From Curtobacterium sp. MCLR17_007 (GTDB taxonomy: Bacteria > Actinomycetota > Actinomycetes > Actinomycetales > Microbacteriaceae): a stretch of 64,000 bases of DNA. The stretch spans positions 2,108,001 to 2,172,000 of the forward strand of contig NZ_CP126271.1 in the NCBI RefSeq assembly GCF_003234655.2, read 5' to 3'. Shown piece after piece: positions 20,216 through 40,834 of the stretch. Under the pieces are notes generated by a model that saw only the letters and a program-made list of their open reading frames with translations, was not told the origin of the DNA and made no database searches. A program made the position numbers and the translations under genes. Each line of letters opens with the position of its first letter. Positions within the stretch are counted from its first letter, which is position 1.

Positions 20216-20303
20216 TCGCCGGGTCGCCGGGTCGCCGGGTCGCCGGCTCGCCGGGTCGCGGGGTCGCCGGCTCGCCGGGTCGCCGGGTCGCGGGGTCGCC
20301 GCT
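20216..20303. repeat. 8-bp tandem repeat, 11 units
   Basis: Eleven consecutive 8-mers based on TCGCCGGG, with variants TCGCGGGG, TCGCCGGC and a final TCGCCGCT. It lies between the asparaginase stop and the stop of the convergent membrane protein gene, and touches the last base of that stop codon. It has no ORF support and is probably a slippage-prone spacer. Confidence 0.85.
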
Positions 20304-21040
20304 CATCGTTCGTCCGGCTGAAGGAGCTCGGGCAGTACCGGCGCGACCCGTTCGCCCGTCGCCCCCGGCCGTGACCGTGTGGTGCACCCGTACCGTGTGA
20401 CGTCGATCGTCGGCCCGTCCTGCCGCGGCGCCGTCCCGAGATCCGGCACGAGCACCACCGACGCGATCCGCTGGCCGCGACCGTCGAGCAGCACCGCCAC
20501 GGCAGTCCCCGACCCGAGGCCCGAACCCGCGCGGCGAAACACCCCGGGCAGGACACGGTCGTCGTCCGGGAACCGCACGTCGTCCGAGAAGACAGTCCGT
20601 GCCTCGTCCTGCTCCGATGCACAACGGCCGAGTGCCACGACCATCGCGGCGAAGACCGCCACGGCCAGTGCTCCGTGTCCGATGACCACGATGCCGGCGG
20701 TGGCGTCGAGCGTGACCGGCTGACCGTCGTCCGCGCGACCGACCGGGACCGTGCCCGCTCGGGCGACACCCGACGACGCACCCGTGTCCGCCGGTGGGTC
20801 CACCCAGGGCAGCGGATCGACGACGGCGACGGGCGGCAGGATGTCGGTGTCAGCGGGAGCACGGACCGACACCGCGACGACGACCAGCGCGACCGCGCAC
20901 GCGACCATCGAGCCCCGCTGCACGGCAGTGGCACCAGAGTCGGCCCCGACGATCACGGACGGACCGAACGCGAGCAGGACCGCGAGGAAGCCGAGGATCG
21001 TGCGCAGCACCGTGATCGTCATGCGGCGATCGAACCGCAC
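20303..21040 (-). CDS. hypothetical membrane protein, end of signalling cluster
   Basis: 245 aa from a GTG at 21040 with GGGGAG 5 nt upstream; an ATG at 21022 is an alternative. Two hydrophobic helices lie near residues 10-35 and 40-60, then a Pro/Asp-rich stretch, a third helix (GIVVIGHGALAVAVFAAMVVALG), and an extracytoplasmic or cytoplasmic C-terminal domain (GTAVAVLLDGRGQRIASVVLVPD). I do not recognise a family. It is downstream of the zinc-ribbon/FHA gene, separated by a perfect hairpin, so it may be expressed at a lower level than the rest of the cluster. Confidence 0.7.
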   Translation of the reverse strand: MRFDRRMTITVLRTILGFLAVLLAFGPSVIVGADSGATAVQRGSMVACAVALVVVAVSVRAPADTDILPPVAVVDPLPWVDPPADTGASSGVARAGTVPVGRADDGQPVTLDATAGIVVIGHGALAVAVFAAMVVALGRCASEQDEARTVFSDDVRFPDDDRVLPGVFRRAGSGLGSGTAVAVLLDGRGQRIASVVLVPDLGTAPRQDGPTIDVTRYGCTTRSRPGATGERVAPVLPELLQPDER

Positions 21041-21063
21041 CCGCGCTCCCCGGAGACGGGATC

Positions 21064-21092
21064 GGCGCCCGCGGTGGACGACCGCGGGCGCC
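21064..21092 (-). terminator. perfect 12-bp hairpin after FHA gene
   Basis: Arms GGCGCCCGCGGT / ACCGCGGGCGCC with a GGACG loop, starting 20 bp past the stop of the zinc-ribbon/FHA gene. No U-tract. Terminator or attenuator before the last membrane protein gene. Confidence 0.65.
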
Positions 21093-21112
21093 GGGCGCGG
21101 TGTGGAGGAGTG

Positions 21113-22984
21113 CTACTGGACGAGGAAGAACTGCTCGCCGATGTCCACCCGCGCGCCGCGTTCCACCCGGTAGCGGCGCCCCGGTTCGCACCGCCGGATC
21201 GAACCGTCGATGTGCCGGATGACCGACCCGTTGCCGGAGAACCGGTCCGACACCCACAGGTCGTCCCCGTCGCGTCCGATCTCCAGGTGGGTCTTCGACA
21301 CGGACTTGCCCGGGTCGTGGATCGTCAGGAGGTCGTCGAACCGCTCGCCCGGCTGCGGTCGCGGCAGACGGCCGAGGAGTCCGGTGCCGTGGACACCGAG
21401 CTGCTCGCCGGTGCTGCAATGCAGCACGAACAGTGCACGCGTCGGGGCCTTCGTGACGATCCGGGTCTCGTCGACGTCCTCGTCGTCCTCGTCGAGCTGC
21501 GCTGACTCGTCGGCATCGCTGCTCGAGGGGACGGTCGCGGCGCCGGGCACGGGCAACACCGGACCGGTCACCCCGGGGATCGGGGGCAGTGGTGCGGACG
21601 TCGGGGCGGACGGGGCCTGGTCATCGCCGCCCGGTGTCGAGGACGGCGCCGTCGGCGACTCGGGCATCGGAGGGACACGGAGCATGTCCTGGTCGTGGTC
21701 CTGGTCCTGGTCCTGGTCGACCCCGCTCGACTCGCCCGGGCCTGACTCGACCATGCCGGTCTCGTCCACGTCGATCTCGCCACGGCCGGTTTCGTCCGCG
21801 CCGGTCTCGTCAGCGTCGGTCTCGTCCGTGCTGGTCTCGTCCGCCCCGGTCTCCTCCGCGTCGAGCTCGTCCGTGGCCGAGCGCGCAGCCCAGTCGGGCC
21901 GAGCGACCGGCAACGGCACCACCGGACCGGTGAACGCAGCGGTCACGGCCGGGCGGACCGCCCCGCACTCGTTGCAGAAGATGTCGTCCGGCTCGAGCTG
22001 ATGTCCGCAGACGTGGCAGGTCGTGGGGTGCGTCCCCGGCTGGACCAGCGGGGTCGGACGGGGCGGGCGTCGGTCGACGAGCGGCTCGACCGCGACGGTG
22101 TCGCCGGGACGGGGAGCCTCGTTCGCCAGCTGGGGGCCGGCCGCCGGACTCGCCAGGCCCTCCGGCTCGCCGGCCTGCGCCGTCGCACCGGTCTGCGTCG
22201 CGGCGTCCGCCCGACCCGAGTCGTCGGTCGGCGCCGAGGCGTCCGCCCGCGCCGAGTCGCCGGCCGTGTCATCAGCGGGCGGTACGAGTGCAACCGGAGC
22301 GTCGGATGCGGCAACGGCAGCCACGTCGGGTTCGGACGCGGTCGTCGCCGTCTCGTCGCCGGCTCGTCCGATCCACCACGAGGGCGTGCTCGGGGTCGGT
22401 GCGGGAGTCTGCTGCGCAGGAGCCCAGAACGGCGCGGAGTCGTCTCGCGACGGAGCCGGCGGCTGGGCGCCCGGTGGGCCGGACCGTTGCGCCAAGCGGG
22501 TGATCTCGGGGTCGTCCTCGGGCGCGATCGGCTCGGCCGGGAACGCATCGGGGTCGAGCGGCGGCTCTGCGGGCGGCTGCTGCGCCTGCCCGGCGGCGAC
22601 GGGAGGCTGTTCGGCAGGTCCCGTCGTCCACGCACCGAGGCCGCTGCCCGCTCCGTGGACGTGCGTCGGAGCCGAGCGCGGCGCGAAGGAGTCCGGCGTC
22701 TGTACCGGGACAGGCTCGACCAGGCCGGACCGGCGTCGGTCCTCGCCGGTGAGCCACGCACGGGTCGCGGGGTCCAGCGTCGACTCCGGCAGCCACGCTT
22801 CCGTTGCGGGGTCCTGGCGTCGTCCGTGCTGGTCGGGCTGCTGCAACGGCGGCGGGGTGCCGCGGTCGACGGGCTCGGGAGCGACGGCACGACGGTTGGC
22901 GGCGGTGTTCACGGCACGACCGCACTCACCGCAGAAGATCGCGCCGTCAGGCAGCACCGATCCGCAGTGTTCGCATGTGATCAC
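21113..22984 (-). CDS. double zinc-ribbon protein with C-terminal FHA domain
   Basis: 623 aa. The N-terminus is a zinc ribbon with Cys4, Cys7, Cys18 and Cys21 (CEHC...CGEC). A second ribbon lies near residue 325 (CHVCG...CNECG). Between and after them are long acidic, Pro/Ala/Asp/Glu-rich linkers, including repeated DET-x-ADE units and a Gln/Asp run. The C-terminal about 100 residues form an FHA domain (LLGRLPRP, SVSKTHLEI, DRFSGNGSV), a phosphothreonine-binding module. The GTG start overlaps the upstream gene's stop as GTGA. It is the probable reader of the cluster's Ser/Thr kinase. Cytoplasmic; no TM. Confidence 0.88.
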   Translation of the reverse strand: MITCEHCGSVLPDGAIFCGECGRAVNTAANRRAVAPEPVDRGTPPPLQQPDQHGRRQDPATEAWLPESTLDPATRAWLTGEDRRRSGLVEPVPVQTPDSFAPRSAPTHVHGAGSGLGAWTTGPAEQPPVAAGQAQQPPAEPPLDPDAFPAEPIAPEDDPEITRLAQRSGPPGAQPPAPSRDDSAPFWAPAQQTPAPTPSTPSWWIGRAGDETATTASEPDVAAVAASDAPVALVPPADDTAGDSARADASAPTDDSGRADAATQTGATAQAGEPEGLASPAAGPQLANEAPRPGDTVAVEPLVDRRPPRPTPLVQPGTHPTTCHVCGHQLEPDDIFCNECGAVRPAVTAAFTGPVVPLPVARPDWAARSATDELDAEETGADETSTDETDADETGADETGRGEIDVDETGMVESGPGESSGVDQDQDQDHDQDMLRVPPMPESPTAPSSTPGGDDQAPSAPTSAPLPPIPGVTGPVLPVPGAATVPSSSDADESAQLDEDDEDVDETRIVTKAPTRALFVLHCSTGEQLGVHGTGLLGRLPRPQPGERFDDLLTIHDPGKSVSKTHLEIGRDGDDLWVSDRFSGNGSVIRHIDGSIRRCEPGRRYRVERGARVDIGEQFFLVQ

Positions 22985-25485
22985 AGGTTGCCTCTGTCCT
23001 CGTCCGGCCCGCTGCGTCGCTCGGCGAGCCTCCCGACATCGTAGTCACCGTCCGCTCCGTGCCCGACGGGGGCCCCGGCGGGGCGGCGGGCGCCGCTGCT
23101 GACCGGCCCCGGGGTCGTTGCCTGAGGACGTCGTGCGCGCAGTGACCGGGTGGAGACCGCCGTCCGGAGACGCTCGCGGCGCGTGCGACCGGAGCGCAGG
23201 TGTCCGATGGCGGAGTCGACCGCGTCCCACATCCGGTCTGCGGCATGCTGGTCCGCGTTGCTCGGCCCGAAGACGGCGCGGTCGGCCAGCGCTGCGAGCC
23301 CCGTGCCCGCGTCACCGGGGGCGGCGATCGCGACCTCGCGCCGGGTCGCCGCGGCAGGGATCTCCTGCCCCCGGTCGAGCAGGGCGTCGCGGTACTCGTC
23401 CCACGCGCCGATGATGCGTCCGCGGGCGGTGGCAGCACGTCGACGGCGGCGACGGCGGACCCGCTTGACCACGAGGACGACGGCGAACGGCAGGAGCACG
23501 AGCGCCACGAACCCGAGGGTCCCGACGATCCACGGCAGTGCGGCGAGCAGGACCTGCAGCCAGAGCGGCGGCTGGTCGGGCGTGTCGCGGTCGCTCTGTG
23601 GCGGGGCCTGCTGGTCCTGGTCCTGCTGCTCGGCGGGCGGCGGCGGGACGACCGTCTCGGGTCGCGTCACCGGCTTCGGGGTCTGCTGCTGTTCGTCGGG
23701 GATCTCACGGACGGCCGGGTTCGGGTCGAGCATGACCCAGCCCCACTGCGCCGTGTCGACCTCGATGCGGGCCGTGACGTCCGAGCCGCGGAACGTCGTG
23801 GTCCCCGACCCGCCGGAGCCGTCCCCGGTTCCCTGACCAGACGGACTCGTGCCGGAGTCACCGCCGGCGGTGAACCCCATGACGACCCGCGCGGGGAACC
23901 CGATCTCGTCGGCCATCAGCGCCGCTGCGACCGCGTACTGCTCCTGGTCCCCCACCATGAGCGGCGAGGTCAACAGCTCCTGGATCCGGTCCGCACCGTG
24001 TCCGGATCGGCTCACCCGGTCGTCGCCGACCCCGTGGCTGACGTACCCGTTGCGCTTGAGTGCCCGGATGACGGCCACGAGTTCCGCCCCGTCGGTCTGC
24101 GCATCGGCTGCCGTCGAGTCGACGGTGTCGCGGACAGGGTCGGGCACGTTCGTGGCGGACGGCACGACGGCGTCGCCTGGTCGGGCGGCCGCCATCTGCT
24201 CGTCGGTCGGCTGGTCGGGGACGACGGCCCGCAGGTCGTACCGGGTGCCGTCCCGCACACCGCCGACGACGGCTCCGGTGTGCGTCGCGGCGTTGTAGAA
24301 GAACGCGCTGCGGTGCCGTTCTGCATCGGGGCCACGGAACGCGACCTGTTCGAGGTCACCGACCGTCGGCAGCCACACGCCGCTGTACCCGTCGACGGTC
24401 ACACCGACGTCGACCGTGCTCCCTCGCACACCGCGGACCTCCACCGTGGTCGGCACGCGCTCGAAGGTGCCGGACGGCGACGCCCCGTCGGACCCGCCCA
24501 CCCGGTAGGTGACGCCGTCGTAGGTGTCGAGCGTCGCGATGCGGACGAACCCGTTTCGCGGCAGACCGGTCACGCGCAGCTGCGTCGTGTCCGCCGCGGT
24601 CGACTCCTCGTACGCGCGGAACCCGCTGAGCGGGCTCACCTGGTCTCGAGGGTCGAAGGGCTTCACGACGTCGGTCCGGGCCACCGTCCTCGCGGCGGTG
24701 GGCGGGGCGACGAGTCCCAGCCCGGTCGCGACGACCGCGGCCGCAACGATGGTCCCGGTGCCCACGAGTGCCGGCCGCAGCACGGATCGACGCACCGCGA
24801 CGGGTGCACCGATGGTGCGCGCCACTGCGGTCGCGCGACGCGCGTGCCGGACGGTCAGTGCCCAGACGAGTGCGACCCCGGTCAACGCGACCCCGACCGC
24901 GATGGACGTGTCCAGTCGCGTCGGTCCGACCACGACGCCGGCTGCGAAGAGCACCAGCGCCGGGATGCTCGCGAACTCCGGACGGGAGGCCCGGGTCGCG
25001 CAGCTCACGCCGGTCACGGTGGCGACGAGGAGCGTCACGAAGAACGGCACGAGCAGGGCCTCGTAGGTGCCGACCGGCAGGCTGATGGTCACGAGCCGCT
25101 TCCAGCCGAGTGCGACCCCGGAGAAGAGGTCGAGGAGCCCCTGCCCCGTCGGCAGCACCCCCGCCGCGCCACCGGGCACTGCGGCCGGGACGCCCGTCAC
25201 GACGAAGGCGGCGATGGTCGCGACGGCGACGGCCGCAGTGGGCAGTCGGAACACCGCGCCGAGCAGGGCGATCACGGTGCCCGCGAACACGGCCGTCAGC
25301 GCTGCGACGACCATCCCCTGGTCACGGTAGACCGGCCACCATGCGACGCTCGCGAGCGCGAGCAGGAGCCAGACGACCAGGGTTCCGGCAGTCAGCCGGG
25401 TCGGGGACACCCGTCGGGCGTCGCGACGGGCCTGCCGACGGGTGTCGCGCCGTGGGCGCGCCGGTGCGAGCGGCGGGGCGCTCAT
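22981..25485 (-). CDS. transglutaminase-fold membrane protein, TgpA-like, active site lost
   Basis: 834 aa from the ATG at 25485, which overlaps the DUF58 stop as ATGA. The N-terminal half has about six to seven TM helices. The extracytoplasmic transglutaminase-like core covers roughly 440-600, then a Gln/Pro/Asp linker, one TM near 640-670, a run of seven Arg residues, and a cytoplasmic DUF4129-like tail. This is the TgpA architecture. However, the Cys position reads GDQEQYA (Gln514 in place of Cys). The His position of the HAWVEV strand reads TARIEV (Thr571). Only the Asp (Asp587, LDPNP) remains. It is likely a pseudoenzyme. Genetically it belongs with MoxR and DUF58. Confidence 0.88.
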   Translation of the reverse strand: MSAPPLAPARPRRDTRRQARRDARRVSPTRLTAGTLVVWLLLALASVAWWPVYRDQGMVVAALTAVFAGTVIALLGAVFRLPTAAVAVATIAAFVVTGVPAAVPGGAAGVLPTGQGLLDLFSGVALGWKRLVTISLPVGTYEALLVPFFVTLLVATVTGVSCATRASRPEFASIPALVLFAAGVVVGPTRLDTSIAVGVALTGVALVWALTVRHARRATAVARTIGAPVAVRRSVLRPALVGTGTIVAAAVVATGLGLVAPPTAARTVARTDVVKPFDPRDQVSPLSGFRAYEESTAADTTQLRVTGLPRNGFVRIATLDTYDGVTYRVGGSDGASPSGTFERVPTTVEVRGVRGSTVDVGVTVDGYSGVWLPTVGDLEQVAFRGPDAERHRSAFFYNAATHTGAVVGGVRDGTRYDLRAVVPDQPTDEQMAAARPGDAVVPSATNVPDPVRDTVDSTAADAQTDGAELVAVIRALKRNGYVSHGVGDDRVSRSGHGADRIQELLTSPLMVGDQEQYAVAAALMADEIGFPARVVMGFTAGGDSGTSPSGQGTGDGSGGSGTTTFRGSDVTARIEVDTAQWGWVMLDPNPAVREIPDEQQQTPKPVTRPETVVPPPPAEQQDQDQQAPPQSDRDTPDQPPLWLQVLLAALPWIVGTLGFVALVLLPFAVVLVVKRVRRRRRRRAATARGRIIGAWDEYRDALLDRGQEIPAAATRREVAIAAPGDAGTGLAALADRAVFGPSNADQHAADRMWDAVDSAIGHLRSGRTRRERLRTAVSTRSLRARRPQATTPGPVSSGARRPAGAPVGHGADGDYDVGRLAERRSGPDEDRGNL

Positions 25486-26894
25486 GCGGCTGCCGATCGG
25501 TGCAGTGCAAGACGGAGGTCGTCGAGGTAGCCGATGGTCATGACCGTCAGGCCGGGGACGCGGACGAAGCGCGGGACGGACTCCGCTTCGCAGATGACGG
25601 CGACGACCTCGACACCGATCGGGAAGCGGGTCGCCGCCAGACGGAGCGCGGGCAGCCCGACCGTCGACCCGACGACGAGGAAGGCCACGGAGATGCCGGC
25701 GGTGTCGTTGCCCACGATGCGCGCGACCTCGGCGACGGGCAGGCACGCGTCAGCCATGGCGACGGACGCGAACTCGTCCAGCAGCCGCGTCGGCGTGACC
25801 GTCGGCAGGCGGTGGACGGCGTAGACGGCGCGCTTGGCGAACTCGGGCGTGCGCTCGGAGACGACGACCGTGACCTCGCGTCCGTCCCGGATCGCCCGGC
25901 TGCCGAGCGACGCGGCCGCACTGACCGCGAGCTCGAACTCGTCGTCGTCGGCGAACTCCGACCGGGCCACCCCGAGCGCGACCACGAGGTGCGAGCGCCG
26001 AGTGTCCTCGAACTGACGCACCATCAGCGCACCGGTCTTCGCCGTCGACTTCCAGTGGACGGTGCGGGGATCGTCGCCCGGCATGTACTCGCGGATGGCG
26101 TGGAACGAGATGTCGGCTGGTGACAGGTCCGTGGTGGCCTGACCCTCGAGGTCGCGGACGAGACCGGTGCTCGTCGACGGGATGGCGACCGTCCTGGGGT
26201 GCACGATCACCTGTTCGCGAGCGGTCCACACGAGTTCGCGGCGGACCAGCCCCACCGGGTCGGCTCGCACACCCGTGACCGGTCCGACGTCGAGGACACC
26301 GCGCCGGGAGGTCGGGACCGGGACGGCGCGTTCGAAGGTGCCCCGCGGTGCGATCGTCGGCACGGCGACGTCCACGAGACCGGCGCCGACCGGGACCTCG
26401 ACTGTGACGGGGACCGACGGCAGCCGTGTGGGGTTCTCGGCGGTCACGGTGACACCGGCCTCGTCCCCCACCGCGACGCGCTTGGCGGGCGGGCTCATCC
26501 GGATGACCAGGCGGGAGTGCCCGATGAGCGCGACGGCGGCGACGACGACGAGGAGCACCCCGGCGAAGCCCACGACCACGACCTCGCGCAGGCCGAAGCG
26601 GTACCCGACGACCAGCGCGACGACCGTCAGGGCCGCGACGGTCCAGCCCAGGCCGGTGACCACGGACGAGACCTCGTCTCGGGCACGTGATGCGGTCCTC
26701 CAGACAGTCCGCCACAGGCGCACGACACCGACGACGGCGTCGGCCGCGACGCCGTCCCGGTCGCCGACGATCCGCGTCCGGACGTTCGTGAGACCGGCGA
26801 CCGTGCTCGTGCGCTCGTGGGCCGTGCCCGCTCGACGCGACCGCGTCGAGGAGGGACGACGCGAGCGCGTGGAGACCGGCCGCCGGTCGGTCAC
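25482..26894 (-). CDS. DUF58 domain membrane protein
   Basis: 470 aa. A basic, Ser/Thr/Arg-rich N-terminus, then two TM helices around residues 80-125, an all-beta extracytoplasmic-like region, and the DUF58 signature IREYMPGDDPRTVHWKSTAK near residue 270, followed by a von Willebrand A-like remainder. DUF58 proteins are standard partners of MoxR AAA+ ATPases. The start overlaps the moxR stop as ATGA (26891-26894) and its own stop overlaps the transglutaminase-like gene. The biochemical function is unknown; an adaptor or substrate-presenting role for MoxR is a common proposal. Confidence 0.9.
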   Translation of the reverse strand: MTDRRPVSTRSRRPSSTRSRRAGTAHERTSTVAGLTNVRTRIVGDRDGVAADAVVGVVRLWRTVWRTASRARDEVSSVVTGLGWTVAALTVVALVVGYRFGLREVVVVGFAGVLLVVVAAVALIGHSRLVIRMSPPAKRVAVGDEAGVTVTAENPTRLPSVPVTVEVPVGAGLVDVAVPTIAPRGTFERAVPVPTSRRGVLDVGPVTGVRADPVGLVRRELVWTAREQVIVHPRTVAIPSTSTGLVRDLEGQATTDLSPADISFHAIREYMPGDDPRTVHWKSTAKTGALMVRQFEDTRRSHLVVALGVARSEFADDDEFELAVSAAASLGSRAIRDGREVTVVVSERTPEFAKRAVYAVHRLPTVTPTRLLDEFASVAMADACLPVAEVARIVGNDTAGISVAFLVVGSTVGLPALRLAATRFPIGVEVVAVICEAESVPRFVRVPGLTVMTIGYLDDLRLALHRSAAA

Positions 26895-27862
26895 GACGTG
26901 ACCCGGTCCGCGGGCGGCGGGGTCTCGACCAGGAGCTGGGAGACGACGCTCGAGGTGCTGACGCCGTCGAACTCCGCTTCAGCGTCGAGCACCATGCGGT
27001 GCGCCAGGACCGGTTCGGCGAGGGCCTTGACGTCGTCGGGCGTGACGTAGTGCCGTCCGCTCAGCGCGGCGAAGACCCGGCTTGCCCGCATCAGGCCCAT
27101 CGCGCCACGCACACTGACACCGAGGCGGACCTCGCTCGCCGCGCGGGTCGCATCGACCAGCCGTGCCACGTAGTCCGCGATCGTGGCGTCGACGTGCACG
27201 GTACGGGCCAGGGCCGCCATCTCGGTGATGGTGGCGGCGGGAACGACGCTCGCGAGCGGGACCGACGACGACGGTGCGGACGAGGTCTCGAGGATCTTCA
27301 CAGTCGCCGCGTGGTCCGGGTACCCGATCGACGCCTTCATCAGGAAGCGGTCGAGCTGGGCCTCGGGGAGTCGGTAGGTCCCCGCCTGCTCGATGGGGTT
27401 CTGCGTGGCGATGACCATGAACGGCGCGGCCAGGCGGTGGGTGATCCCGTCGACGGTGATCGCGGATTCCTCCATCGCCTCGAGCAGGGCGGACTGGGTC
27501 TTCGGGCTGGCGCGGTTGATCTCGTCGGCGAGCACGATGTTCGCGAAGACGGGGCCCCGGTGGAACTCGAACTCCTGGTTGCGCTGGTCGTAGACGCTGA
27601 TGCCGGTGATGTCGCCGGGGAGCAGGTCCGGTGTGAACTGGATGCGGTTCGTCGAGCCCTGCACGCTCTGTGCGAGCGCCCGCGCCATGCTCGTCTTGCC
27701 GGTGCCGGGGACGTCCTCGAGGAGCAGGTGCCCCTCGCTGAGCATCGCCGTCACCGCGAGCCGGATGACGAACGTCTTCCCGAGGAGCACCTGCTCGACG
27801 TTGGTCACGATGCGGCCGGCGACGTCGGCGAACCAGGTGGCCTGCTCGGGGGACATGCTCAT
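26891..27862 (-). CDS. moxR: MoxR-family AAA+ ATPase
   Basis: 323 aa. Walker A is EDVPGTGKT, Walker B is IVLADEINRA, and the sensor segment VIATQNPIEQAGTYRLPEAQLDRFLMK is the MoxR hallmark. The C-terminal helical lid is SVRGAMGLMRASRVFAALSGRHYVTPDDV. MoxR ATPases act as chaperone-like remodelers, usually on proteins encoded by adjacent DUF58/VWA genes. GGAG lies 9 nt before the ATG. The gene starts 22 bp after the giant surface protein stop and couples to DUF58 by ATGA. Confidence 0.94.
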   Translation of the reverse strand: MSMSPEQATWFADVAGRIVTNVEQVLLGKTFVIRLAVTAMLSEGHLLLEDVPGTGKTSMARALAQSVQGSTNRIQFTPDLLPGDITGISVYDQRNQEFEFHRGPVFANIVLADEINRASPKTQSALLEAMEESAITVDGITHRLAAPFMVIATQNPIEQAGTYRLPEAQLDRFLMKASIGYPDHAATVKILETSSAPSSSVPLASVVPAATITEMAALARTVHVDATIADYVARLVDATRAASEVRLGVSVRGAMGLMRASRVFAALSGRHYVTPDDVKALAEPVLAHRMVLDAEAEFDGVSTSSVVSQLLVETPPPADRVTS

Positions 27863-27884
27863 GCGGGGAGTTCTCCTCGTTCGG

Positions 27885-30800: not shown

Positions 30801-33686
30801 GTTCGACGCCTGTTCTGCGCGCGGCGCGATCCCGATCCGGATCGTGCCGGTGGCCCGGGCGCCGAGGGCGTCGACGACCGTGTAGGTGAACTCGTCGGTG
30901 CCGGCGGAGTAGTCACCGGCGTCGTAGGTGAGCGAGGACGACCCGACGTCGCTCACCGAGCCCTTGTCGGGGTTCGACGCGACACCGACGAGCTGCACCG
31001 AGTCACCGTCGGGGTCGATCCCGTTGAGCGGCACCGAGATGCGCACGGCCTGGCCGGCGACGACACGGGCGGTCACGGTCTGCGGCACCGGCGGGTTGTT
31101 CGTGGCGCTGTCGGCCTCCCGGACGGAGATCGACACGGCAGCGTCGGCGGACTGCCCGTCAGGGCCGGCGACCCGGTAGACGGCGGTGTAGTTGCCCGGC
31201 GTCTTCGGGGCGAGGTAGCGCAGGTGGTCACCGGAGACGAAGAGCAGGCCGCCGTCGCCCGGCACGTTCTGCACCAGGTCCGGCTCGAGCGTGAGCGGTT
31301 CGCCCTCGGGCTGCGTGTCGTTCGCGAGCACGTCGATGTCGGCCACGTCACCGACACGGACCGTGGCGGAGTCCGGCTGTGCGACCGGCGGCTGGATCCG
31401 GTCGGGCTTCGGGATCTCGACGACGGTGATGGTCCCCGTCGAGGACGCGAGCCCGTTCGTCTCGGTGTAGCTGAACGTCACGGGGCCGTCGAGCGGCGCG
31501 GTCAGCGTGGTGCGCACGGTGTGCTGGTCGAGGATGCTCGCCTGCACCCCGGAGCCACGGTCGGGTCCGCCGAGCGCGGTCACGAGCAGCACACCGCCGG
31601 CCGGGTCGATGTCCGTCGCGGTGACGTCGGTGTCCTTCGTCGACAGCGTCGTGACGAACACGGTCTTCGGGGTGGTGATCGGAGCCGTCGAGGCGTCGGG
31701 CGGGCGCAGGACCGTGATGCGCACGACACCGCTGGCCGTCTTGGTGCCGTCCGTCACGGTGTACTCGACCTGGTGGTCCCCCAGGGCGGAGCTGTCGACG
31801 CGGAACGTGCCCGCGTCGTAGCTCGGCGTGATCGTCACGCCGGTGGCCGAGGAGACACTGGTCAGCGTGACCGTGCCGTTCCCGCCCCGGACGTGCTCGA
31901 GGGGGTCGACCGAGAAGGTCCTGCCGGCGTAGCCCTGCACCGGGAAGGCGTCCGCCCGCAGCGGGACGCTCCCCTGCGCGGCGACGTGCACGGTCACCGA
32001 GCCACGACCGTCCGCGCGGCCGTCGCTGACGACGATCTGCACGCTGCGGTCGCCGGTGCGACCGCTGGTGTTCCGGAAGTCGAGCAGTCCGTCGGGCGTC
32101 GTGGAGACCTGGTCGCCGTCCGAGGCCGAGGCGGACTCCAGATAGACCGGATCGCCGTCCGGGTCGACCCAGTCGCCGAGGACGTTGCTGGAGACGTGCC
32201 CGTTGCGCACCACGTCGGCGCTGGTGTCCCGGACCTGCCGCGGTGCGTCGTTCTGCGACGCGGGACGCACCGACACGCGGACGGTCGCGCTGGCGGAGCC
32301 GCCGTTGCCGTCGGTGATCGTGTACGGGAACTCGACGGTGCCGCTGGCACCCTCGGCGAGGCTGATCTGCAGTCGCTGGCCGTCATCGACGATCGCGACC
32401 GAGCCGTCGGCGCTGTCCACGTCACCGACCTCGGTGATGACGATCGGGTCACCGTTGGGGTCGTAGTCGTTGAGCAGGACCGGGAGGCTCGTGGTGCGTC
32501 CGGGACGCGCGCCCAGGTCGTCGTCGACCGCCACCGGCGGCTTCTGGTCCTTCTCGACCTGCGGGTCGTCGTCGGACACCTGTTCCTGCTGCTGGTCGTC
32601 GTCCCGCTTGACCAGGTCGGACCAGTTGTCGATGAGCTGGCCGCTGCGGGCGATCGCCCACGACCGGCCCGTGGCGGGGTCGTTCGCGACGACCGTGTCC
32701 CCGTTGTGCACGATGGCCAGCGCAGCGTCCCCCGGCACACGGTCGAGCTGCTGCACGGCACGGCCGTCACACGTGTCGACGGCCTGTCCGCCGCTCCACG
32801 CGGCGTAGGTGCAGGACCCGGTGACGTACGGCCGAGCGGCGCGACCGGACACGGCCAGCGCGGTCGAGGTCACCGACCCCGAGGGGGTCACGCGCACGGT
32901 TCCGGCCGCGCCCGCGACGACCACCGCGTCGCCGGTGGCAGCGGAGCGCTGGAGTGCCGGCGACGCCCCCACGCGGTCCCCGAGGTCGACGGTGCTGCCG
33001 TCGATCGAGAGCCTGCCGTTGGTTCGGTCGAGGACTGCCACGTGGGTCCCGACACTCGCCACCTGGAAGTCGTCGGTCCGGTCCATGCGCACCGACCACT
33101 TCTGCGCGACCGACAGCGTCGTCCCGAGCTGGACCAGGGACGCCGTGCCCGTGCGGGGCGAGTAGACGGCGACGTGGTCGTCCGAGGCGTCGAACACGGC
33201 GTCGGCGCCGAGGGTCAGGTCGGCCTTGGTCGACGCGTCGAACTCGTCCAGGCGGTTGGCCGGCGTCGACCAGAGCTCGCCGGTGTCCTGGTTGCCGATG
33301 ACCGCGGTGCTGCCGGCGAGGAAGACCTGCGGGGACCCGGACGGCAGGGTGACGGCGTCACCCACGGTCGCGTCTGCCACGTCGACCTTGGCGACGGTGC
33401 CCTTGGTCTCGTCGACGCTGTAGACCACCGAGCCGCGCTGGAGCACCGAGAGGGAGTCCGTCGATGCCTCGACCGCGGTGTTGAGCTGCAGGACCTGGGT
33501 GTTCACGCGTCCCACGGCTCCGTACTGCGCCGAGGGCACCCAGACGGTCCCGTCGCCGAGGTCGATGCGCTGGGTGTGGTAACCGCTCGACACCACGGCG
33601 GCGCCCGCGACCAGGGCCGCGACGACCACCGACGCCCCGACCGTCACGGCGGCGGACCGGTGCCGCGCGATCAGCCGCCTGATCAC
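27885..33686 (-). CDS. 1933-aa membrane-anchored propeller/Ig/FN3 surface protein
   Basis: The N-terminal basic segment and single TM helix (residues about 13-33) predict a type II anchored extracellular protein. Residues about 45-355 are short repeated beta strands resembling a beta-propeller. A charged Gln/Asp linker (about 360-385) follows. From about 385 to 1455 there are roughly ten cadherin-like/tandem-95 modules with the signature VLxNDxDPxGDxL and xxPDxxATFxYTVTDG. Two to three FN3 domains follow (about 1459-1760), then a Cys-containing C-terminal region. No LPxTG or C-terminal TM. The start overlaps the kinase stop as ATGA. It is a likely adhesin or cell-wall scaffold, and the best candidate for the object the cluster regulates. 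Confidence 0.9.
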   Translation of the reverse strand: MIRRLIARHRSAAVTVGASVVVAALVAGAAVVSSGYHTQRIDLGDGTVWVPSAQYGAVGRVNTQVLQLNTAVEASTDSLSVLQRGSVVYSVDETKGTVAKVDVADATVGDAVTLPSGSPQVFLAGSTAVIGNQDTGELWSTPANRLDEFDASTKADLTLGADAVFDASDDHVAVYSPRTGTASLVQLGTTLSVAQKWSVRMDRTDDFQVASVGTHVAVLDRTNGRLSIDGSTVDLGDRVGASPALQRSAATGDAVVVAGAAGTVRVTPSGSVTSTALAVSGRAARPYVTGSCTYAAWSGGQAVDTCDGRAVQQLDRVPGDAALAIVHNGDTVVANDPATGRSWAIARSGQLIDNWSDLVKRDDDQQQEQVSDDDPQVEKDQKPPVAVDDDLGARPGRTTSLPVLLNDYDPNGDPIVITEVGDVDSADGSVAIVDDGQRLQISLAEGASGTVEFPYTITDGNGGSASATVRVSVRPASQNDAPRQVRDTSADVVRNGHVSSNVLGDWVDPDGDPVYLESASASDGDQVSTTPDGLLDFRNTSGRTGDRSVQIVVSDGRADGRGSVTVHVAAQGSVPLRADAFPVQGYAGRTFSVDPLEHVRGGNGTVTLTSVSSATGVTITPSYDAGTFRVDSSALGDHQVEYTVTDGTKTASGVVRITVLRPPDASTAPITTPKTVFVTTLSTKDTDVTATDIDPAGGVLLVTALGGPDRGSGVQASILDQHTVRTTLTAPLDGPVTFSYTETNGLASSTGTITVVEIPKPDRIQPPVAQPDSATVRVGDVADIDVLANDTQPEGEPLTLEPDLVQNVPGDGGLLFVSGDHLRYLAPKTPGNYTAVYRVAGPDGQSADAAVSISVREADSATNNPPVPQTVTARVVAGQAVRISVPLNGIDPDGDSVQLVGVASNPDKGSVSDVGSSSLTYDAGDYSAGTDEFTYTVVDALGARATGTIRIGIAPRAEQASNPIAEADHVTIRPGGSVTVRVLQNDSDPEGGQLTVSKAEPTAQDVRAKVLRGQQIRVTPPKDATSGDFAVLYTASNENGGASTAFLTVTVDKDARPLRPEVDDTTLDLQDILHRQTVTVDVLRNVFFAEGATSQLRVGVVDGYGDDARVTTDGRVVVTLTDQSQVIPFSVARQDHPDIVSYGFIHVPGFDDALPQVNRSAGAITVTSEATVRIPLSKYVVTANGRTAEVTDAGSVKATHANGDDLTADRSTLQFTSAKLYYGNASISFEVTDGSDANGGKGRVATLVLPIKVEPRSNQPPAFTGSSIEMQPGDSRTIDLARLTDYPYPKDLPELTYSVVSQPASGTTATISGQRLTISVADTAQKNTTATIGIGVADATNAGRSGLVSVGIVASNRPLVQPGADSAVAQRGQSTTIDVLANDQPTNPFPNERLRVVNIRGLAGGLPSGVTITPSADRSRLQVSVSDSAKPVNTNLQYQIADATNDPDRYVWGDVTISVQDVPDAPGAPTRTGSYDGGQVTLSWSSPQANNSAITGYRVTGTNGIAKDCGLATVCTLTGLDPKATYRFTVVAVNAIGQSAASQQSAAMSADYVPAPPKGITVAADRSTPNQLDVSWNPVATPNNGTAVSNYVVSIEGPGLSTTRNTGTATDATFQGAQSAAQYTVTVSARNSADRDNTVVQWNSAQGSGTAVGSPAKPALSATGNPQAGQTAVSLTASESDWAGGGTSMRIVKYRSDAAIPTGCSTSGSEYVWNATTATDQISSQYRYVALADNGLFCSASDVANVQGYQTPDAPKGTVSVPTDGLPKQDYGIALTASGRGDYLYYSVNGGPRVLFDGSADLGAGAGFGVPTNVVLTTCATADDYCASTTLSGATAFTTRASIAGAVEGQRPVINPPNNGNPAFAPSDYGIVYCSPGLLGVISCTDQKPDNGGAYGTSDPVPVGAVEIRVSATVDGHTDPGYASHDVTSADGN

Positions 33687-35095
33687 GAGCCGCTCCCGAT
33701 GGTCGCGCAGCGCTGTGCACTCGCGGCCCCGGTCTTGCCGTCACGGTTGACGGCGACGGAGATGCACTCCTCGTCGCCGGCGGCTCCGGACACGACGAAG
33801 GTCGTGCCCGACTGCTGACTGGAAGCGCCGTTCGACGAGATGACGTACGTGTCGCCCGACTCGAGCCCGGGGTCGGACCAGCGGAAGGTGATCGACCCGG
33901 TCGACGAGGACGCACGCACGTCGGAGACCGTCGGGATCGCGCCGGTGCCCGACCGGGACACCGCGAGGACCGTCGTCACCGCGAGGGCGGCCACCACGAC
34001 GGCCGCGACGCTGGACACCCACACGACGGTGCGTCGGGAGCGGCGCCGGTTCTGTGTCATCGAGCCGGTCCGGTGCACGGTGCCGACGCTGCGGGACCCC
34101 GTGGCCGCGACCCCGCCCTGGACGGGACGCCGTGCGCGGCGCCGACGTCCGACCCGCGACGGTGGCTGCAGGTCGCGCACCATCGTGCGGTCGCCGTCGG
34201 GCGAGGGCATCGCGACGGCCCAGGCCTCGACCGCGACGTCGGCCGGTGTCTGCGGCAGGCCGAGCTCGGCCTGCACCTGCTGGAACCCGCGCACCAGTTC
34301 CATCACCGTGGCGGGTCGCTGCTGGACGCGGCGCGACATCGCCGTCGCGAGCAGCCGCTCCAGCGACGGCGGGACGTCGGTCCGTCCGGTGGGCTTCACG
34401 CCACCCCGGTCGATCCGGCCCATCAGGTCGGATGCGCCGTTCTTGCCGCCGGGCACCTCGAAGGGACTGCGGCCGGCGACGAGCGAGAAGACGGTGGCCG
34501 CGAGCGAGTACACCTCGGACTGGACCGAACCGCGGGACTCGTCGATCAGGACCTCGGGCGCCGACCACGGGATCGACATGCCGATGGGCTCGTCGGGGTC
34601 CGCGCCGCCGATGGTGGCCGCGATGCCGAAGTCGGACAACACCGGGTTGCCGTACGCCGTGAGCAGGATGTTCGAGGGCTTGACGTCCCGGTGCAGCACA
34701 CCCTCGCGGTGCGCCGTCTCGAGCGCCGACCCGATGCGGATGCCGATCGACAGCACCTCGGACACGGGCACGGGCGCACGACGGTACCGCTCGCTGAGGG
34801 AGGACGAGCAGAGCTCCATGACCAGGTACGGTCGGCCGTCCGACGCGACGCTGGCCTGGAACACCGTGAGGATCGACGGATGCGTGCTGAGCCGTGCCAT
34901 CAGGTTCGCCTCGGCCTGGAACATCTGCCGCACGCGGTCGTCGACGACCTCGTCGAGCAGGACCTTCACCGCGACCTGACGCCGCGGCATGTCCTGTTCG
35001 TAGAGGAAGACGTCGGCGAAGCCACCGGAACCGAGCACGTGGACGGGGCTGAAGCCGGCGATGACCGGAGGCGTGGACGGCAGGCGTCGCGCCAT
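33683..35095 (-). CDS. transmembrane Ser/Thr protein kinase (PknB-like)
   Basis: 470 aa. The kinase domain covers about 10-270: glycine loop LGSGGFADV (residues 21-29), Lys44 in VAVK, catalytic HRD 135-137 with Lys139 and Asn142, DFG 155-157, and APE near 179-181. A basic juxtamembrane region follows, one TM helix at about 357-379, and a short extracellular FN3-like domain (about 388-465). There are no PASTA repeats, so it is not the cell-division PknB. The ATG has GGAAGG upstream. A TAGACT box at 35146-35151 may be its promoter. It is paired with the PP2C phosphatase upstream and FHA proteins on both sides. Confidence 0.93.
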   Translation of the reverse strand: MARRLPSTPPVIAGFSPVHVLGSGGFADVFLYEQDMPRRQVAVKVLLDEVVDDRVRQMFQAEANLMARLSTHPSILTVFQASVASDGRPYLVMELCSSSLSERYRRAPVPVSEVLSIGIRIGSALETAHREGVLHRDVKPSNILLTAYGNPVLSDFGIAATIGGADPDEPIGMSIPWSAPEVLIDESRGSVQSEVYSLAATVFSLVAGRSPFEVPGGKNGASDLMGRIDRGGVKPTGRTDVPPSLERLLATAMSRRVQQRPATVMELVRGFQQVQAELGLPQTPADVAVEAWAVAMPSPDGDRTMVRDLQPPSRVGRRRRARRPVQGGVAATGSRSVGTVHRTGSMTQNRRRSRRTVVWVSSVAAVVVAALAVTTVLAVSRSGTGAIPTVSDVRASSSTGSITFRWSDPGLESGDTYVISSNGASSQQSGTTFVVSGAAGDEECISVAVNRDGKTGAASAQRCATIGSGS

Positions 35096-35145
35096 GGTGC
35101 CCTTCCTCCCCGGCCGGCATGGCCAGTCGTTCGTCGCGGCATCCC

Positions 35146-35151
35146 AGTCTA
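35146..35151 (-). promoter_or_regulatory. candidate -10 of the kinase/surface-protein operon
   Basis: TAGACT on the minus strand, 50 nt before the kinase ATG, downstream of a GC-rich hairpin. It gives a leader of about 44 nt carrying a ribosome binding site. The -35 is not clear. Confidence 0.4.
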
Positions 35152-35205
35152 CGGAGCCGCACTCGGCGCGACTCCGTGCGCACACGCAGGCAACGCCCCC
35201 GCGGT

Positions 35206-35220
35206 CCCCCAGTTCGGGGG
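35206..35220 (-). terminator. short GC hairpin after the PP2C gene
   Basis: CCCCC-AGTTC-GGGGG directly after the phosphatase stop. It may partly separate the phosphatase/FHA transcript from the kinase transcript. Confidence 0.45.
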
Positions 35221-35226
35221 CCCTGG

Positions 35227-36048
35227 TCAGTGTCGAGGAAGCGTGTCCTCGAGGTCGGTGTCGTCGGGTGCACCCTCGACCTGCAGGACGACCACGGTGA
35301 CGTTGTCGCGGCCACCCGCGACGAGTGCGTCGCCGACGAGGCGTTCGGCGAGTTCCTGCGGATCGGTGACCTTGGCGGCGATCCGGCTGATCCCGGCGTC
35401 ACCGATCTCCTTGGTGAGCCCGTCCGAGCAGATGATGTAGCGGTCGCCGGTGCGGAGCGGCAGGGTCCACCAATCGGGCTCCGGCGGCTCGCCGAAGCCC
35501 ACGGCCCGGGTGATCACGTTGCTGTCAGGGTGCGCCTCGGCGTCCTCGGCACGCAGGACACCGGCGTCGACCATCTCCTGGACGACCGAGTGGTCGACGG
35601 TGATCCGGCGGAGGGCGCCGTTCTCGATGCGGTAGGTGCGGGAGTCCCCCACGTTGAACACGAGCGCGGCAGGCTGCCCCTCGGTCGCCACCAGGGCCAG
35701 CCCCGTGACGGTCGTGCCCGCGCCGATCGCGTTGCCACCGGCTGCGCGCTCGATGTCCGCCGTCGCCAACAGGAGCGCGTGCTGGATGGACTGGCGCGAC
35801 CCGAAGGGACCGTCGACCGCGTCTCCGAGCCGACGGACGACCGCGTCACTGGCGCGGTCGCCGGCGAGGTGGCCGCCCATGCCGTCCGCGACGACGAAGA
35901 ACGGCGCCTCGACGATGTAGCTGTCCTCGTTGTGGTCCCGACGGCGGCCGATGTCGGTCGCGGCACCCCACGACAGCGTGAGCATGGCACCGCCTGCTCC
36001 GGGGACGTCGATGGCGTGTGCGGCGGCGGCTCGGCCGAGTTCGGTCAC
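35227..36048 (-). CDS. PP2C-family Ser/Thr protein phosphatase (PstP-like)
   Basis: 273 aa. All metal-binding motifs are present: DHNEDS near 38-43, ADGMGGH near 54-60, the GDSRTYR strand, CSDGLT and GGRDNVTVVVL. It removes phosphate from Ser/Thr residues, probably counteracting the adjacent kinase. No TM segment, unlike mycobacterial PstP. The start is the GTG at 36048; the core fold begins about 20 residues later (LSWGAATDIGRRR), so a shorter start is possible. It precedes the kinase gene by 131 bp with a hairpin and a possible promoter between. Confidence 0.93.
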   Translation of the reverse strand: MTELGRAAAAHAIDVPGAGGAMLTLSWGAATDIGRRRDHNEDSYIVEAPFFVVADGMGGHLAGDRASDAVVRRLGDAVDGPFGSRQSIQHALLLATADIERAAGGNAIGAGTTVTGLALVATEGQPAALVFNVGDSRTYRIENGALRRITVDHSVVQEMVDAGVLRAEDAEAHPDSNVITRAVGFGEPPEPDWWTLPLRTGDRYIICSDGLTKEIGDAGISRIAAKVTDPQELAERLVGDALVAGGRDNVTVVVLQVEGAPDDTDLEDTLPRH

Positions 36049-36086
36049 GTGTCAGGATCGCTCTCTGGGGGTTCGGGGCGTGCCGG

Positions 36087-36695
36087 TCAACTGCGTCGGG
36101 GGGATGCGAGGGTCGGTGGGAAGCCGTCCGCAGACGGTGTCGCTCGGAGGTGTGGCGAGAGGATCTCGATGGCGATGCCGTCCCCGATCTCGACTACCGT
36201 ACCCGTCAGCGCGACGATCGACGCACCTGCTGGCATCCGGTACGGCGGGGCACCCGCGGGTCTGACCACCGTGCCGTTGGTCGAGCGGAGGTCCTGGACC
36301 ACGGCGACGTCGCCCTCGGCGTGGACCTGCAGGTGCGACGAGGAGACCTGACCGAGCGGCGAGGGGACCGTCACGAGGACGGGCTCCGGTCCGCTGACGA
36401 TGCGTGGGAGCGCCGGCCGACGGCCGATCACGACGGGGCGGTCCAGGCGGAGACGTCGCTCCCCCACCCGGATCGACGGCACCCGGTCGCGGACCTGCGT
36501 CGATCCGCCGCGGGACGGGACCGCGGGGAGGACCGGCGACGCGTCCGGTTCGCCGGACGGCCCCGACGAGGGCTGCGGCTCGGACGTCGCAGCACGTCGG
36601 ATGACGGTGTCGCCGAACGGGTCCGACAGCCCACGGGCATGCGGCGGGAGCGACCGGGGCCGGATGACGGTGTCCTCGGTGTCGTCGTCGTGCAC
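36087..36695 (-). CDS. FHA domain protein
   Basis: 202 aa from a GTG at 36695, with GGGAAGGG upstream. The N-terminal half is disordered and contains two EDTVIRP/GDTVIRR-type segments: a Thr in an acidic-to-basic context, plausible kinase phosphosites as in FhaA/GarA-type proteins. The C-terminal FHA domain has RPVVIGRRP, SSSHLQV and DLRSTNGT, the canonical phosphothreonine-binding residues. Soluble. It lies directly upstream of the phosphatase gene. Likely both a substrate and a reader of the cluster's kinase. Confidence 0.85.
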   Translation of the reverse strand: MHDDDTEDTVIRPRSLPPHARGLSDPFGDTVIRRAATSEPQPSSGPSGEPDASPVLPAVPSRGGSTQVRDRVPSIRVGERRLRLDRPVVIGRRPALPRIVSGPEPVLVTVPSPLGQVSSSHLQVHAEGDVAVVQDLRSTNGTVVRPAGAPPYRMPAGASIVALTGTVVEIGDGIAIEILSPHLRATPSADGFPPTLASPRRS

Positions 36696-36750
36696 GCCGT
36701 GCCCCTTCCCCGATGTCCCGACGAGCGTAGACGATGCCGTGCACCGCGCG

Positions 36751-37305
36751 TCACCCCCGCCACGCCGGGGCGGCGCCGGCGAGCACGGAACGGAGCACGA
36801 GGCCGGCGAGCGGGTCACGCGGGTCCGTCTCCAGCGCGTAGCGAGCGCGGACCTCGGCGCGAGCGGTGGAGCCGGTCGCCCACGCGCACCACGCCGCCAG
36901 TGCGAGCGCGCCGGCGACCCCGATGCGTTCGTCGCGAGGAGACCCTTGGCGCTTCCATGCCTGCCAGACGGCGACGCAGCGGTCCCCGGCGGTGCGGACC
37001 CGGACGAGGTCCGGGGTTGGCCCCACGCCGTGGAGAGCCGTCGGGGTGTCGTCGTGGAACGGGTCGTACGGTCGCACCGCGCGGGCGACAGGCACCGCGG
37101 GGTCAGCGAGCTCACGGACGAGCGCCATGCGGGTGGCGAGGGCACCGCAGGCGGTCGTGATCGCGGCTGCGGTCGCGGTCGTCACCGCCGCCGGACCCGG
37201 CGCGACGAGGGCGGCGCACGCCGCCGGGAGGGTGATCGCAGCGGCGATCTCCCGCGGGTGACGGACGTACTGGTCGGAGGCTGATCGGACTGCGTCTGGG
37301 TTCAT
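36751..37305 (-). CDS. DUF4192-like protein, C-terminal domain only
   Basis: 184 aa from the ATG at 37305. The C-terminal third (ALALAAWCAWATGSTARAEV... then ALETDPRDPLAGLVL) resembles the end of actinobacterial DUF4192 proteins. The long N-terminal part of that family is missing, so this is a short or truncated relative. An Ala-rich hydrophobic stretch (about 25-65) could be helical or membrane-associated. No function is known. It is first in transcription order of the signalling cluster. The family call is by eye and moderate. Confidence 0.55.
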   Translation of the reverse strand: MNPDAVRSASDQYVRHPREIAAAITLPAACAALVAPGPAAVTTATAAAITTACGALATRMALVRELADPAVPVARAVRPYDPFHDDTPTALHGVGPTPDLVRVRTAGDRCVAVWQAWKRQGSPRDERIGVAGALALAAWCAWATGSTARAEVRARYALETDPRDPLAGLVLRSVLAGAAPAWRG

Positions 37306-38428: not shown

Positions 38429-38429
38429 G

Positions 38430-40834
<2,405 letters not shown>

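What the first reader, a model, noticed from the sequence alone, without database searches (positions are those of the whole stretch)
20303..37305. Kinase-phosphatase-FHA module fused by operon structure to MoxR-DUF58-pseudotransglutaminase and a 1933-aa surface protein
Seen: ten co-directional genes. Kinase/giant protein, moxR/DUF58, DUF58/TG-like and TG-like/FHA junctions are 4-bp ATGA or GTGA overlaps. Known: PknB-type kinases, PP2C phosphatases and FHA readers form phosphothreonine circuits; MoxR and DUF58 act together in protein maturation. Inference: the circuit controls folding, assembly or display of the giant propeller/cadherin-like/FN3 protein. Both FHA proteins have disordered stretches, and one carries two DTVIRP/R-like Thr sites. 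I know of no established function for this combined set.
Basis: partly seen in the sequence, partly recalled or inferred. Interest (0 to 1): 0.72.

Follow-up and report, generated by a model that had tools for sequence, protein, structure and literature searches.

The report
Widespread actinobacterial giant surface-protein operon
This gene cluster makes a very long surface protein together with a kinase, a protein-remodelling ATPase and a transglutaminase-like protein that has lost its catalytic residue; it was described as special to gut bifidobacteria and to sensing the human immune system, but it also occurs in soil and plant bacteria, so its basic job is probably something else.

Summary
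The ten genes and four 4-bp overlaps are real. The core, kinase–giant–MoxR–DUF58–TG-like, has the gene order of the published "PFNA operon" of Bifidobacterium, described there as unique to bifidobacteria and linked to host cytokines. Here its giant protein is found in 239 of 396 genomes of the order, with named carriers such as Curtobacterium, Arthrobacter, Oerskovia and Isoptericola. The immune role is therefore unlikely to be ancestral.

New facts: (1) the "transglutaminase" has lost its catalytic Cys in 117 of 117 proteins examined, while other residues near the dead site are nearly invariant. (2) The giant has a propeller base, an Ig-like stalk of near-constant length (1148–1221 residues in 141 uncut proteins) and a C-terminus of variable length. 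(3) A short acidic-Thr-hydrophobic motif is over-represented in the kinase, both FHA proteins and, in Bifidobacterium-like genomes, the MoxR tail, but not in giant, TG-like or PP2C proteins.

Best reading: a phosphothreonine-gated machine that assembles or displays a wall-spanning surface fibre. Genes 1 and 10 look like Curtobacterium add-ons.

The parts
36751..37305 (-). Gene 1: 184-aa protein, weak C-terminal similarity to DUF4192 (below Pfam cut-off); seen only in Curtobacterium and one near relative, not core
   Evidence: (21.2 bits vs cut-off 27.8)
36087..36695 (-). Gene 2: FHA protein with acidic N-terminus carrying two DTVIR sites (36657-36677 and 36594-36614)
35227..36048 (-). Gene 3: PP2C-type Ser/Thr phosphatase (Stp1-like)
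33683..35095 (-). Gene 4: PknB-like Ser/Thr kinase, one membrane helix (res 355-384), about 85-residue outer tail read by eye as FN3-like (no Pfam hit); linker motif GDRTMVRD at 34172-34195
27885..33686 (-). Gene 5: 1933-aa giant surface protein, N-terminal membrane anchor
32571..33569 (-). Giant: beta-propeller domain (res 40-372)
   Evidence: AF2, most ten-residue blocks from 51 to 360 over pLDDT 90; Foldseek and VIA-align to propellers
29322..32540 (-). Giant: Ig/cadherin-like stalk (res 383-1455), near-constant length in the giants examined
28737..29321 (-). Giant: two FN3 domains (res about 1456-1650)
27888..28736 (-). Giant: variable C-terminal part (res 1651-1933)
26891..27862 (-). Gene 6: MoxR-family AAA+ ATPase with intact Walker A/B
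25482..26894 (-). Gene 7: DUF58 (vWA-like) membrane protein; column of the first MIDAS-like Asp is Asp in 15 of 118
22981..25485 (-). Gene 8: TgpA-like membrane protein whose transglutaminase-fold ectodomain (23566-24690) lacks the catalytic Cys
23932..23952 (-). GDQEQYA motif in place of the catalytic GxCxxF/Y; nearby SGHGADRI at 23983-24006
21113..22984 (-). Gene 9: two zinc ribbons, long low-complexity middle, C-terminal FHA domain (19.5 bits, just under the Pfam cut-off of 20.7); DETRIV motif at 21455-21472
20303..21040 (-). Gene 10: small membrane protein without a Pfam or NCBIfam match; recognised only in Curtobacterium loci, not core

Best explanation
The locus is the Microbacteriaceae version of the PFNA operon and encodes a phosphothreonine-gated machine for a giant surface fibre. 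Shown by sequence and model: the giant has one N-terminal membrane helix, a propeller at its base, an Ig/cadherin-like stalk of near-constant length (by length, about eleven domains), two FN3 domains and a C-terminus variable in length and sequence. MoxR and the kinase keep their catalytic residues; the TgpA-like partner keeps the fold but not the catalytic Cys. Inferred: the stalk carries the tip through the cell wall; MoxR, working through the DUF58 and pseudo-transglutaminase membrane proteins, folds, assembles or releases the giant; the membrane kinase senses the outside (through its own ectodomain or the giant) and writes pThr marks on a shared acidic-Thr-hydrophobic motif in itself, in the FHA proteins and, in bifidobacteria, in the MoxR tail; FHA domains read the marks and PP2C erases them. 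The pseudo-transglutaminase would then be an assembly or adaptor part, not a cross-linker.
For: Gene order: the TG-like gene directly follows in 115 of 124 giant loci with room (a further one, L130, was missed by the rule because the ORFs overlap). The kinase is the recognised gene just before the giant in 47 of 47 Curtobacterium, 21 of 21 other Microbacteriaceae, 10 of 10 f4 and 12 of 26 other-family loci. Pseudo-TG DNA signature and giant over 396 genomes: 204 both, 35 giant only, 32 signature only, 125 neither (not corrected for kinship). Tandem giants beside one MoxR-DUF58-TG set (L100, L110, L112, L115, L118) fit 'several clients, one machine'. 0 of 117 TG-like proteins keep the Cys, while G495, H496, R500, G512, E515, Q516, R533, E575 and W583 are each in 115-117 of 117. 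Best fold match TgpA, E 1.2e-12. Stalk 1148-1221 residues in 141 uncut giants (CV 0.9%) against 108-570 (CV 21.9%) for the part after it. Motif observed/expected: FHA1 150/12.6, kinase 85/23.2, zinc-ribbon FHA 35/7.6, f4 MoxR 28/2.6; giant 152/181, TG-like 37/44, PP2C 5/18. Published: B. longum operon co-transcribed, kinase phosphorylates MoxR (PMC8430577); B. bifidum FN3 protein mediates adhesion (PMC12607495 passage).
Against: In Micrococcaceae the kinase was just before the giant in 0 of 32 loci, after it in 2 (L093, L098) and not seen in 30, though most of those loci reach only about 5 kb past the giant. Five loci lack a recognised MoxR beside the giant (L093, L098, L125, L130, L144), so MoxR may be dispensable. 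Five Micrococcaceae loci (L025 and L104 are one place) and L106 show a giant with no recognised core gene next to it. A constant stalk could reflect only that its repeats are too diverged to recombine. Motif enrichment is not phosphorylation; it is at chance in the f4 kinases (2 seen, 2.2 expected), 146 of the 150 FHA1 motifs are in Microbacteriaceae-type loci and outside them FHA1 is near chance (4 vs 2.1), and MoxR outside f4 is below expectation. No direct evidence here that MoxR acts on the giant.
Confidence: 0.5

Rival explanations
1. Envelope-stress or wall-integrity sensor: the giant is the sensing antenna (or tether) for the kinase, and the output is wall synthesis or ATPase/division control; display of the tip is incidental.
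For: Membrane kinase with an outer tail next to the giant; fixed stalk length would suit a probe of wall thickness; PknB-type kinases of actinobacteria sense the wall (recalled).
Against: Does not explain tandem giants or the variable C-terminus; none of the recognised core genes is a wall enzyme.
Confidence: 0.25
2. Host-immune sensing (published PFNA hypothesis): the FN3 domains bind cytokines through a WSxWS-like motif and the operon relays host signals.
For: Recombinant FN3 fragments of B. longum are reported to bind TNF-alpha in vitro and transcription of the operon to rise with TNF-alpha (PMC8430577 abstract and sections, PMC10688814 passages).
Against: The operon also occurs in soil and plant genera. 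WSxxS stretches in the C-terminal 40% of the giant occur there too (Arthrobacter WSDYS; unnamed non-f4 genomes WSEWS, WSAWS), and the window's site reads GQSAAS. It may still be a secondary use in gut bifidobacteria.
Confidence: 0.07
3. Kin recognition or conflict system: a MoxR/vWA-type NTP-dependent system whose variable tip mediates contact recognition.
For: Variable C-terminus and frequent giant paralogues; MoxR also passes the bpMoxR cut-off (38.4 vs 27 bits); MoxR-vWA ternary conflict systems are described (PMC7159879 passages).
Against: No toxin or effector domain was found in the window's ten proteins and the best MoxR hit is generic AAA_3 at 215.7 bits; DUF58 is not mentioned in PMC7159879's main text.
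Confidence: 0.1
4. Loose neighbourhood: a giant adhesin with its MoxR-DUF58-TgpA helpers that happens to sit by a separate kinase/PP2C/FHA operon.
For: 131-bp gap before the kinase; kinase position varies between families and was not seen in most Micrococcaceae loci.
Against: 4-bp kinase/giant overlap here; kinase, PP2C and FHA genes recur on one side or the other of the core in many families; co-transcription of all eight genes reported in B. longum (PMC8430577).
Confidence: 0.08

Closest known systems
PFNA operon of Bifidobacterium (pkb2-fn3-aaa-atp-duf58-tgm, +prpC, hypothetical, fha)
   Same: Same five core genes in the same order; giant of about 2000 aa with an N-terminal membrane segment and two FN3 stretches at about residues 1450-1670; PP2C and FHA genes alongside.
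   Different: Here PP2C and one FHA gene lie before the kinase and a zinc-ribbon-FHA gene follows the TG-like gene; no WSxPS motif; the genus is environmental or plant-associated; MoxR has no N-terminal motif tail.
MoxR-DUF58-TgpA operons (Pseudomonas PA2875-PA2873; paralogue in this genome at C1:2.90 Mb)
   Same: MoxR next to DUF58 next to a TgpA-like membrane protein (own paralogue); ectodomain fold matches TgpA 6g49/6g4h. That PA2875/PA2874 are MoxR/DUF58 is recalled.
   Different: The paralogue keeps Cys and His and PA2873 is reported to keep the triad (PMC3507681 passage); none of the 117 proteins of this operon type keeps the Cys, and the operon includes a giant and, in many families, a kinase.
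Lap-type adhesin control (LapA/LapD/LapG)
   Same: Giant adhesin controlled from inside by a system with a transglutaminase-like component (recalled; abstracts in the listing).
   Different: LapG is an active protease and the signal is c-di-GMP; homology was not tested.
Mycobacterial PknB/FhaA and GarA-type phosphothreonine circuits
   Same: Membrane Ser/Thr kinase, PP2C and FHA readers with acidic-Thr sites (recalled).
   Different: The partners here include a giant and a MoxR machine; not compared by sequence.

Membership tests
[quoted passage not shown]
   definition from PMC8430577
PFNA operon | fn3 product of about 2000 aa with N-terminal membrane segment and two FN3 domains | tested here: met
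   1933 aa, one N-terminal hydrophobic segment, two fn3 stretches
PFNA operon | Sequence relation to a bifidobacterial FN3 protein | tested here: inconclusive
   No named bifidobacterial sequence was at hand. Window against five f4 giants: stalk 30-32% identity over 1057-1060 residues, FN3 part 30-35%. f4/g336 is inferred to be Bifidobacterium from gene order, WSKPS/WSKES motifs and lacto-N-biose phosphorylase in 3 of 7 g336 genomes and 0 of 11 others tested
PFNA operon | Kinase with membrane helix and extracellular C-terminus | tested here: met
PFNA operon | WSxWS-like 'cytokine receptor' motif in FN3 domain 1 | tested here: not met
   Window reads GQSAAS; within the published set two species also depart from it in domain 1
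PFNA operon | Co-transcription | not testable with these tools
   4-bp overlaps only suggest it
PFNA operon | Confined to Bifidobacterium (claim of PMC10688814) | tested here: not met
   a published statement about distribution that these loci contradict
Transglutaminase (active, TgpA type) | TgpA fold | tested here: met
Transglutaminase (active, TgpA type) | Catalytic Cys | tested here: not met
   0 of 117; own-genome paralogue keeps it; 112 of 117 ectodomains have no Cys at all
MoxR AAA+ ATPase | Walker A and Walker B motifs | tested here: met
   114 of 114
MoxR-vWA ternary conflict systems | MoxR + vWA + third core component with effector domains | tested here: inconclusive
   bpMoxR hit at 38.4 bits (cut-off 27) but below generic AAA_3 at 215.7; no effector domain found in the ten proteins

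The most novel reading that the evidence does not exclude
A widespread, previously unrecognised actinobacterial surface-organelle system: a molecular-ruler fibre of fixed wall-spanning length, built by an AAA+ machine through a conserved pseudo-transglutaminase whose dead site has been rebuilt into a new binding or chemical site (H496, R500, E515, Q516, E575), and gated by a pThr code whose short motif has moved between kinase, FHA proteins and MoxR in different lineages.
Probability: 0.3. Interest if true: 0.85.

Novelty: new variant of a known kind. Interest (0 to 1): 0.6.

Why it matters
A published operon is interpreted, and its FN3 protein promoted, on the premise that it is unique to bifidobacteria and tuned to the human immune system. 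Finding its giant in 115 of 150 sampled Microbacteriaceae genomes and the gene set in soil actinobacteria moves the question to a basic function of the actinobacterial envelope, testable in easy environmental strains. It also shows that the operon's 'transglutaminase' is unlikely to be a Cys-dependent transglutaminase, offers explicit candidate pThr sites, and gives a giant surface protein whose stalk length is nearly constant over great evolutionary distance.

Tried and rejected
Whole-protein PDB sequence search of the TG-like protein found nothing; the structure model did. DUF58 also seemed enriched for the Thr motif (71 vs 35), but the commonest hits are conserved fold strands (EVTVV, DLTVL), so I set it aside; the looser motif also caught a conserved EDTRR there. 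The first MIDAS-like Asp of DUF58 is mostly lost, but the two paralogues used as controls do not show a full DxSxS either, so I make little of it. Genomes with the pseudo-TG signature but no giant hit: of 32, four were opened, each at one site: G600 and G772 have no operon there (chance match), G794 has the full operon missed by the giant profile, G757 showed none of the genes. So both over- and under-counts. Literature: a search pairing PFNA terms with Curtobacterium, Arthrobacter and Cellulomonas returned 709 papers holding two terms, ten listed, none of the ten with a PFNA term; this does not exclude a paper further down. Searches listed the bifidobacterial papers, a mycobacterial review that likens the moxR operon to PFNA (PMC12067865, passages), papers on other MoxR, vWA or TgpA systems, and unrelated ones. 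Papers: PMC8430577 abstract and the sections headed 3 and 4; PMC6803598, PMC10688814, PMC12607495, PMC12067865, PMC7159879, PMC3507681 passages only; others search listing only. No paper was read whole.

Counts to read with care: loci L025-L160 are not independent (L025 and L104 are one place, as are L027 and L117 and some Curtobacterium pairs). Of 153 giant ORFs, 10 of 1700 aa or less were dropped; of the 144 aligned (143 and the window), three more cut by the locus end were dropped, which hardly changed the result. The rule put the kinase 'just upstream' in only 7 of 26 other-family loci because of a 2.5-kb limit; plain order gives 12 of 26. One search left L153 out. ORFs were taken stop to stop, so some upstream non-coding sequence is included. 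The genome-contig scan kept the best 80 of 482 relatives, so named taxa lean to near kin. Signature control: the reversed pattern occurred in 10 of 396 genomes by my count. The MoxR tree is one gene, 51 rows, with long branches and 12 open forks.
Full report
What is in the window. The window is G000:C1:2108001-2172000 of a 3.8-Mb genome; the nearest named relative found at this locus is Curtobacterium sp. Leaf183 (99% over the giant's N-terminus). Ten genes run on the minus strand from 37305 to 20303. Pfam and NCBIfam give: a weak DUF4192 match, FHA, PP2C, Ser/Thr kinase, a Big_9/cadherin/fn3 giant, MoxR, DUF58, TgpA_N + Transglut_core, two zinc ribbons + FHA, and an unclassified membrane protein. 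The four 4-bp overlaps are exact. Flanks are ordinary: yaaA and ATP synthase genes on one side, a convergent asparaginase II gene on the other.

It is known, but not as thought. The core order kinase-giant-MoxR-DUF58-TG is that of the PFNA operon (PMC8430577), stated to be found only in bifidobacteria (PMC10688814 passage). The giant's N-terminal domain was found in 115 of 150 sampled genomes of the family (69 of 85 genera), 239 of 396 of the order (59 of 110 genera) and 14 of 396 of the phylum (eight in the order, one in the class, five labelled 'same phylum'; G356 and G564 are weak partial matches). Three of the 'same phylum' genomes, G319, G393 and G282, were opened and hold the operon (L136-L138). 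Named carriers include Frigoribacterium, Frondihabitans, Arthrobacter, Pseudarthrobacter, Luteimicrobium, Oerskovia, Xylanimicrobium and Isoptericola. These are counts of the giant; gene order was read only in the loci below.

Gene order. With profiles built from the window, 136 giant loci were read. Where there was room, the TG-like gene followed in 115 of 124 loci (L130 has it too, in overlap). The kinase is the recognised gene just before the giant in 47 of 47 Curtobacterium loci, 21 of 21 other Microbacteriaceae loci, 10 of 10 f4 loci, 12 of 26 loci of other families and 0 of 32 Micrococcaceae loci. In three other-family loci (L136, L140, L144) and two Micrococcaceae loci (L093, L098) it lies after the core. 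Variants: more than one giant (12 of 32 Micrococcaceae loci; L100; three in a row in L153), MoxR-less sets (L093, L098, L125, L130, L144), and giants with no recognised neighbour (L025/L104, L094, L101, L106, L111). Gene 1 was recognised only in Curtobacterium loci and L056, gene 10 in the eight Curtobacterium loci L033-L040. The MoxRs of 48 loci or the window's kin form one side of the tree against three MoxR paralogues of this genome, and f4 is one clade.

Link to Bifidobacterium. Loci L121-L123 of family f4, genus g336, carry the published order including PP2C and FHA after the TG gene; several f4 giants have FN3 motifs WSKPS/WSKES at the published site (compare; L127 has none); lacto-N-biose phosphorylase is in 3 of 7 g336 genomes against 0 of 11 others. 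I infer that g336 is Bifidobacterium; no named sequence was compared. The window's giant aligns with five f4 giants over the whole stalk (30-32% of 1057-1060 residues).

Dead transglutaminase. Against the genome's own TgpA paralogue (L168, Cys and His kept) the Cys column of 117 operon-type proteins (window included) reads Q45, D35, A14, E10, S10, G3 and never C; G[DN]xEQ[YF] is found in 115 of 117 (not in L138 and L140). 112 of 117 ectodomains contain no Cys. The His column is His in 26 of 117. Yet residues around it are strongly kept: G495, H496, R500, G512, E515, Q516, R533, E575, W583 in 115-117 of 117, as are some at the start of the ectodomain (R266, R270, P285, L286). The model (pLDDT 82.8) matches the periplasmic domain of Pseudomonas TgpA best (E 1.2e-12). 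So the fold is kept, Cys chemistry is not.

Phosphothreonine code. The motif [DE]xT[VIRQHM][VILM] against shuffled sequence: FHA1 150 vs 12.6, kinase 85 vs 23.2, zinc-ribbon FHA 35 vs 7.6; MoxR of f4 28 vs 2.6 but MoxR elsewhere 6 vs about 25; giant 152 vs 181, TG-like 37 vs 44, PP2C 5 vs 18. By lineage: FHA1 is enriched in Microbacteriaceae-type loci (146 of its 150 motifs) and near chance in the ten others (4 vs 2.1); kinase is enriched in Microbacteriaceae, in two Micrococcaceae and in the rest (10 vs 3.6) but at chance in f4 (2 vs 2.2). In kinase linkers a stricter form was in 45 of 91 against 3.8 expected, and outside Curtobacterium in 24 of 45 against 1.7. The f4 MoxR tail agrees with the published phosphorylation of MoxR by the kinase.

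Function. The host-immune reading rests on bifidobacterial data; the same gene set, and WSxxS stretches, occur in soil genera, so that is unlikely to be the shared function. I favour a pThr-gated assembly/display machine for a wall-spanning fibre (0.5), with a wall-sensing antenna as main rival (0.25).

Noticed in passing
L168 (G000:C1:2899000-2907500): The same genome has a second MoxR-DUF58-TgpA operon with intact catalytic Cys and His, a natural control for the dead one.
   Followed up: partly
L153 (G129:C1), L110, L112, L115, L118, L100: Two or three giant genes in tandem before one MoxR-DUF58 set.
   Followed up: partly
L025/L104, L094, L101, L106, L111: Giants with no recognised kinase, MoxR, DUF58 or TG-like gene beside them.
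   Followed up: no
L093, L098, L125, L130, L144: Sets with giant, DUF58 and TG-like genes but no recognised MoxR next to them.
   Followed up: no
L102: A record titled Vibrio cholerae strain 35D that carries Arthrobacter-like tandem giants: probably a mislabelled or mixed assembly.
   Followed up: no
window 37398-40834: yaaA and ATP synthase genes lie just upstream; relatives of both are also in the Curtobacterium, Frigoribacterium and Frondihabitans loci.
   Followed up: partly
genomes, e.g. G125, G118, G061: Several Microbacteriaceae hold a second, diverged copy of the operon (L148, L150, L152, L156).
   Followed up: partly
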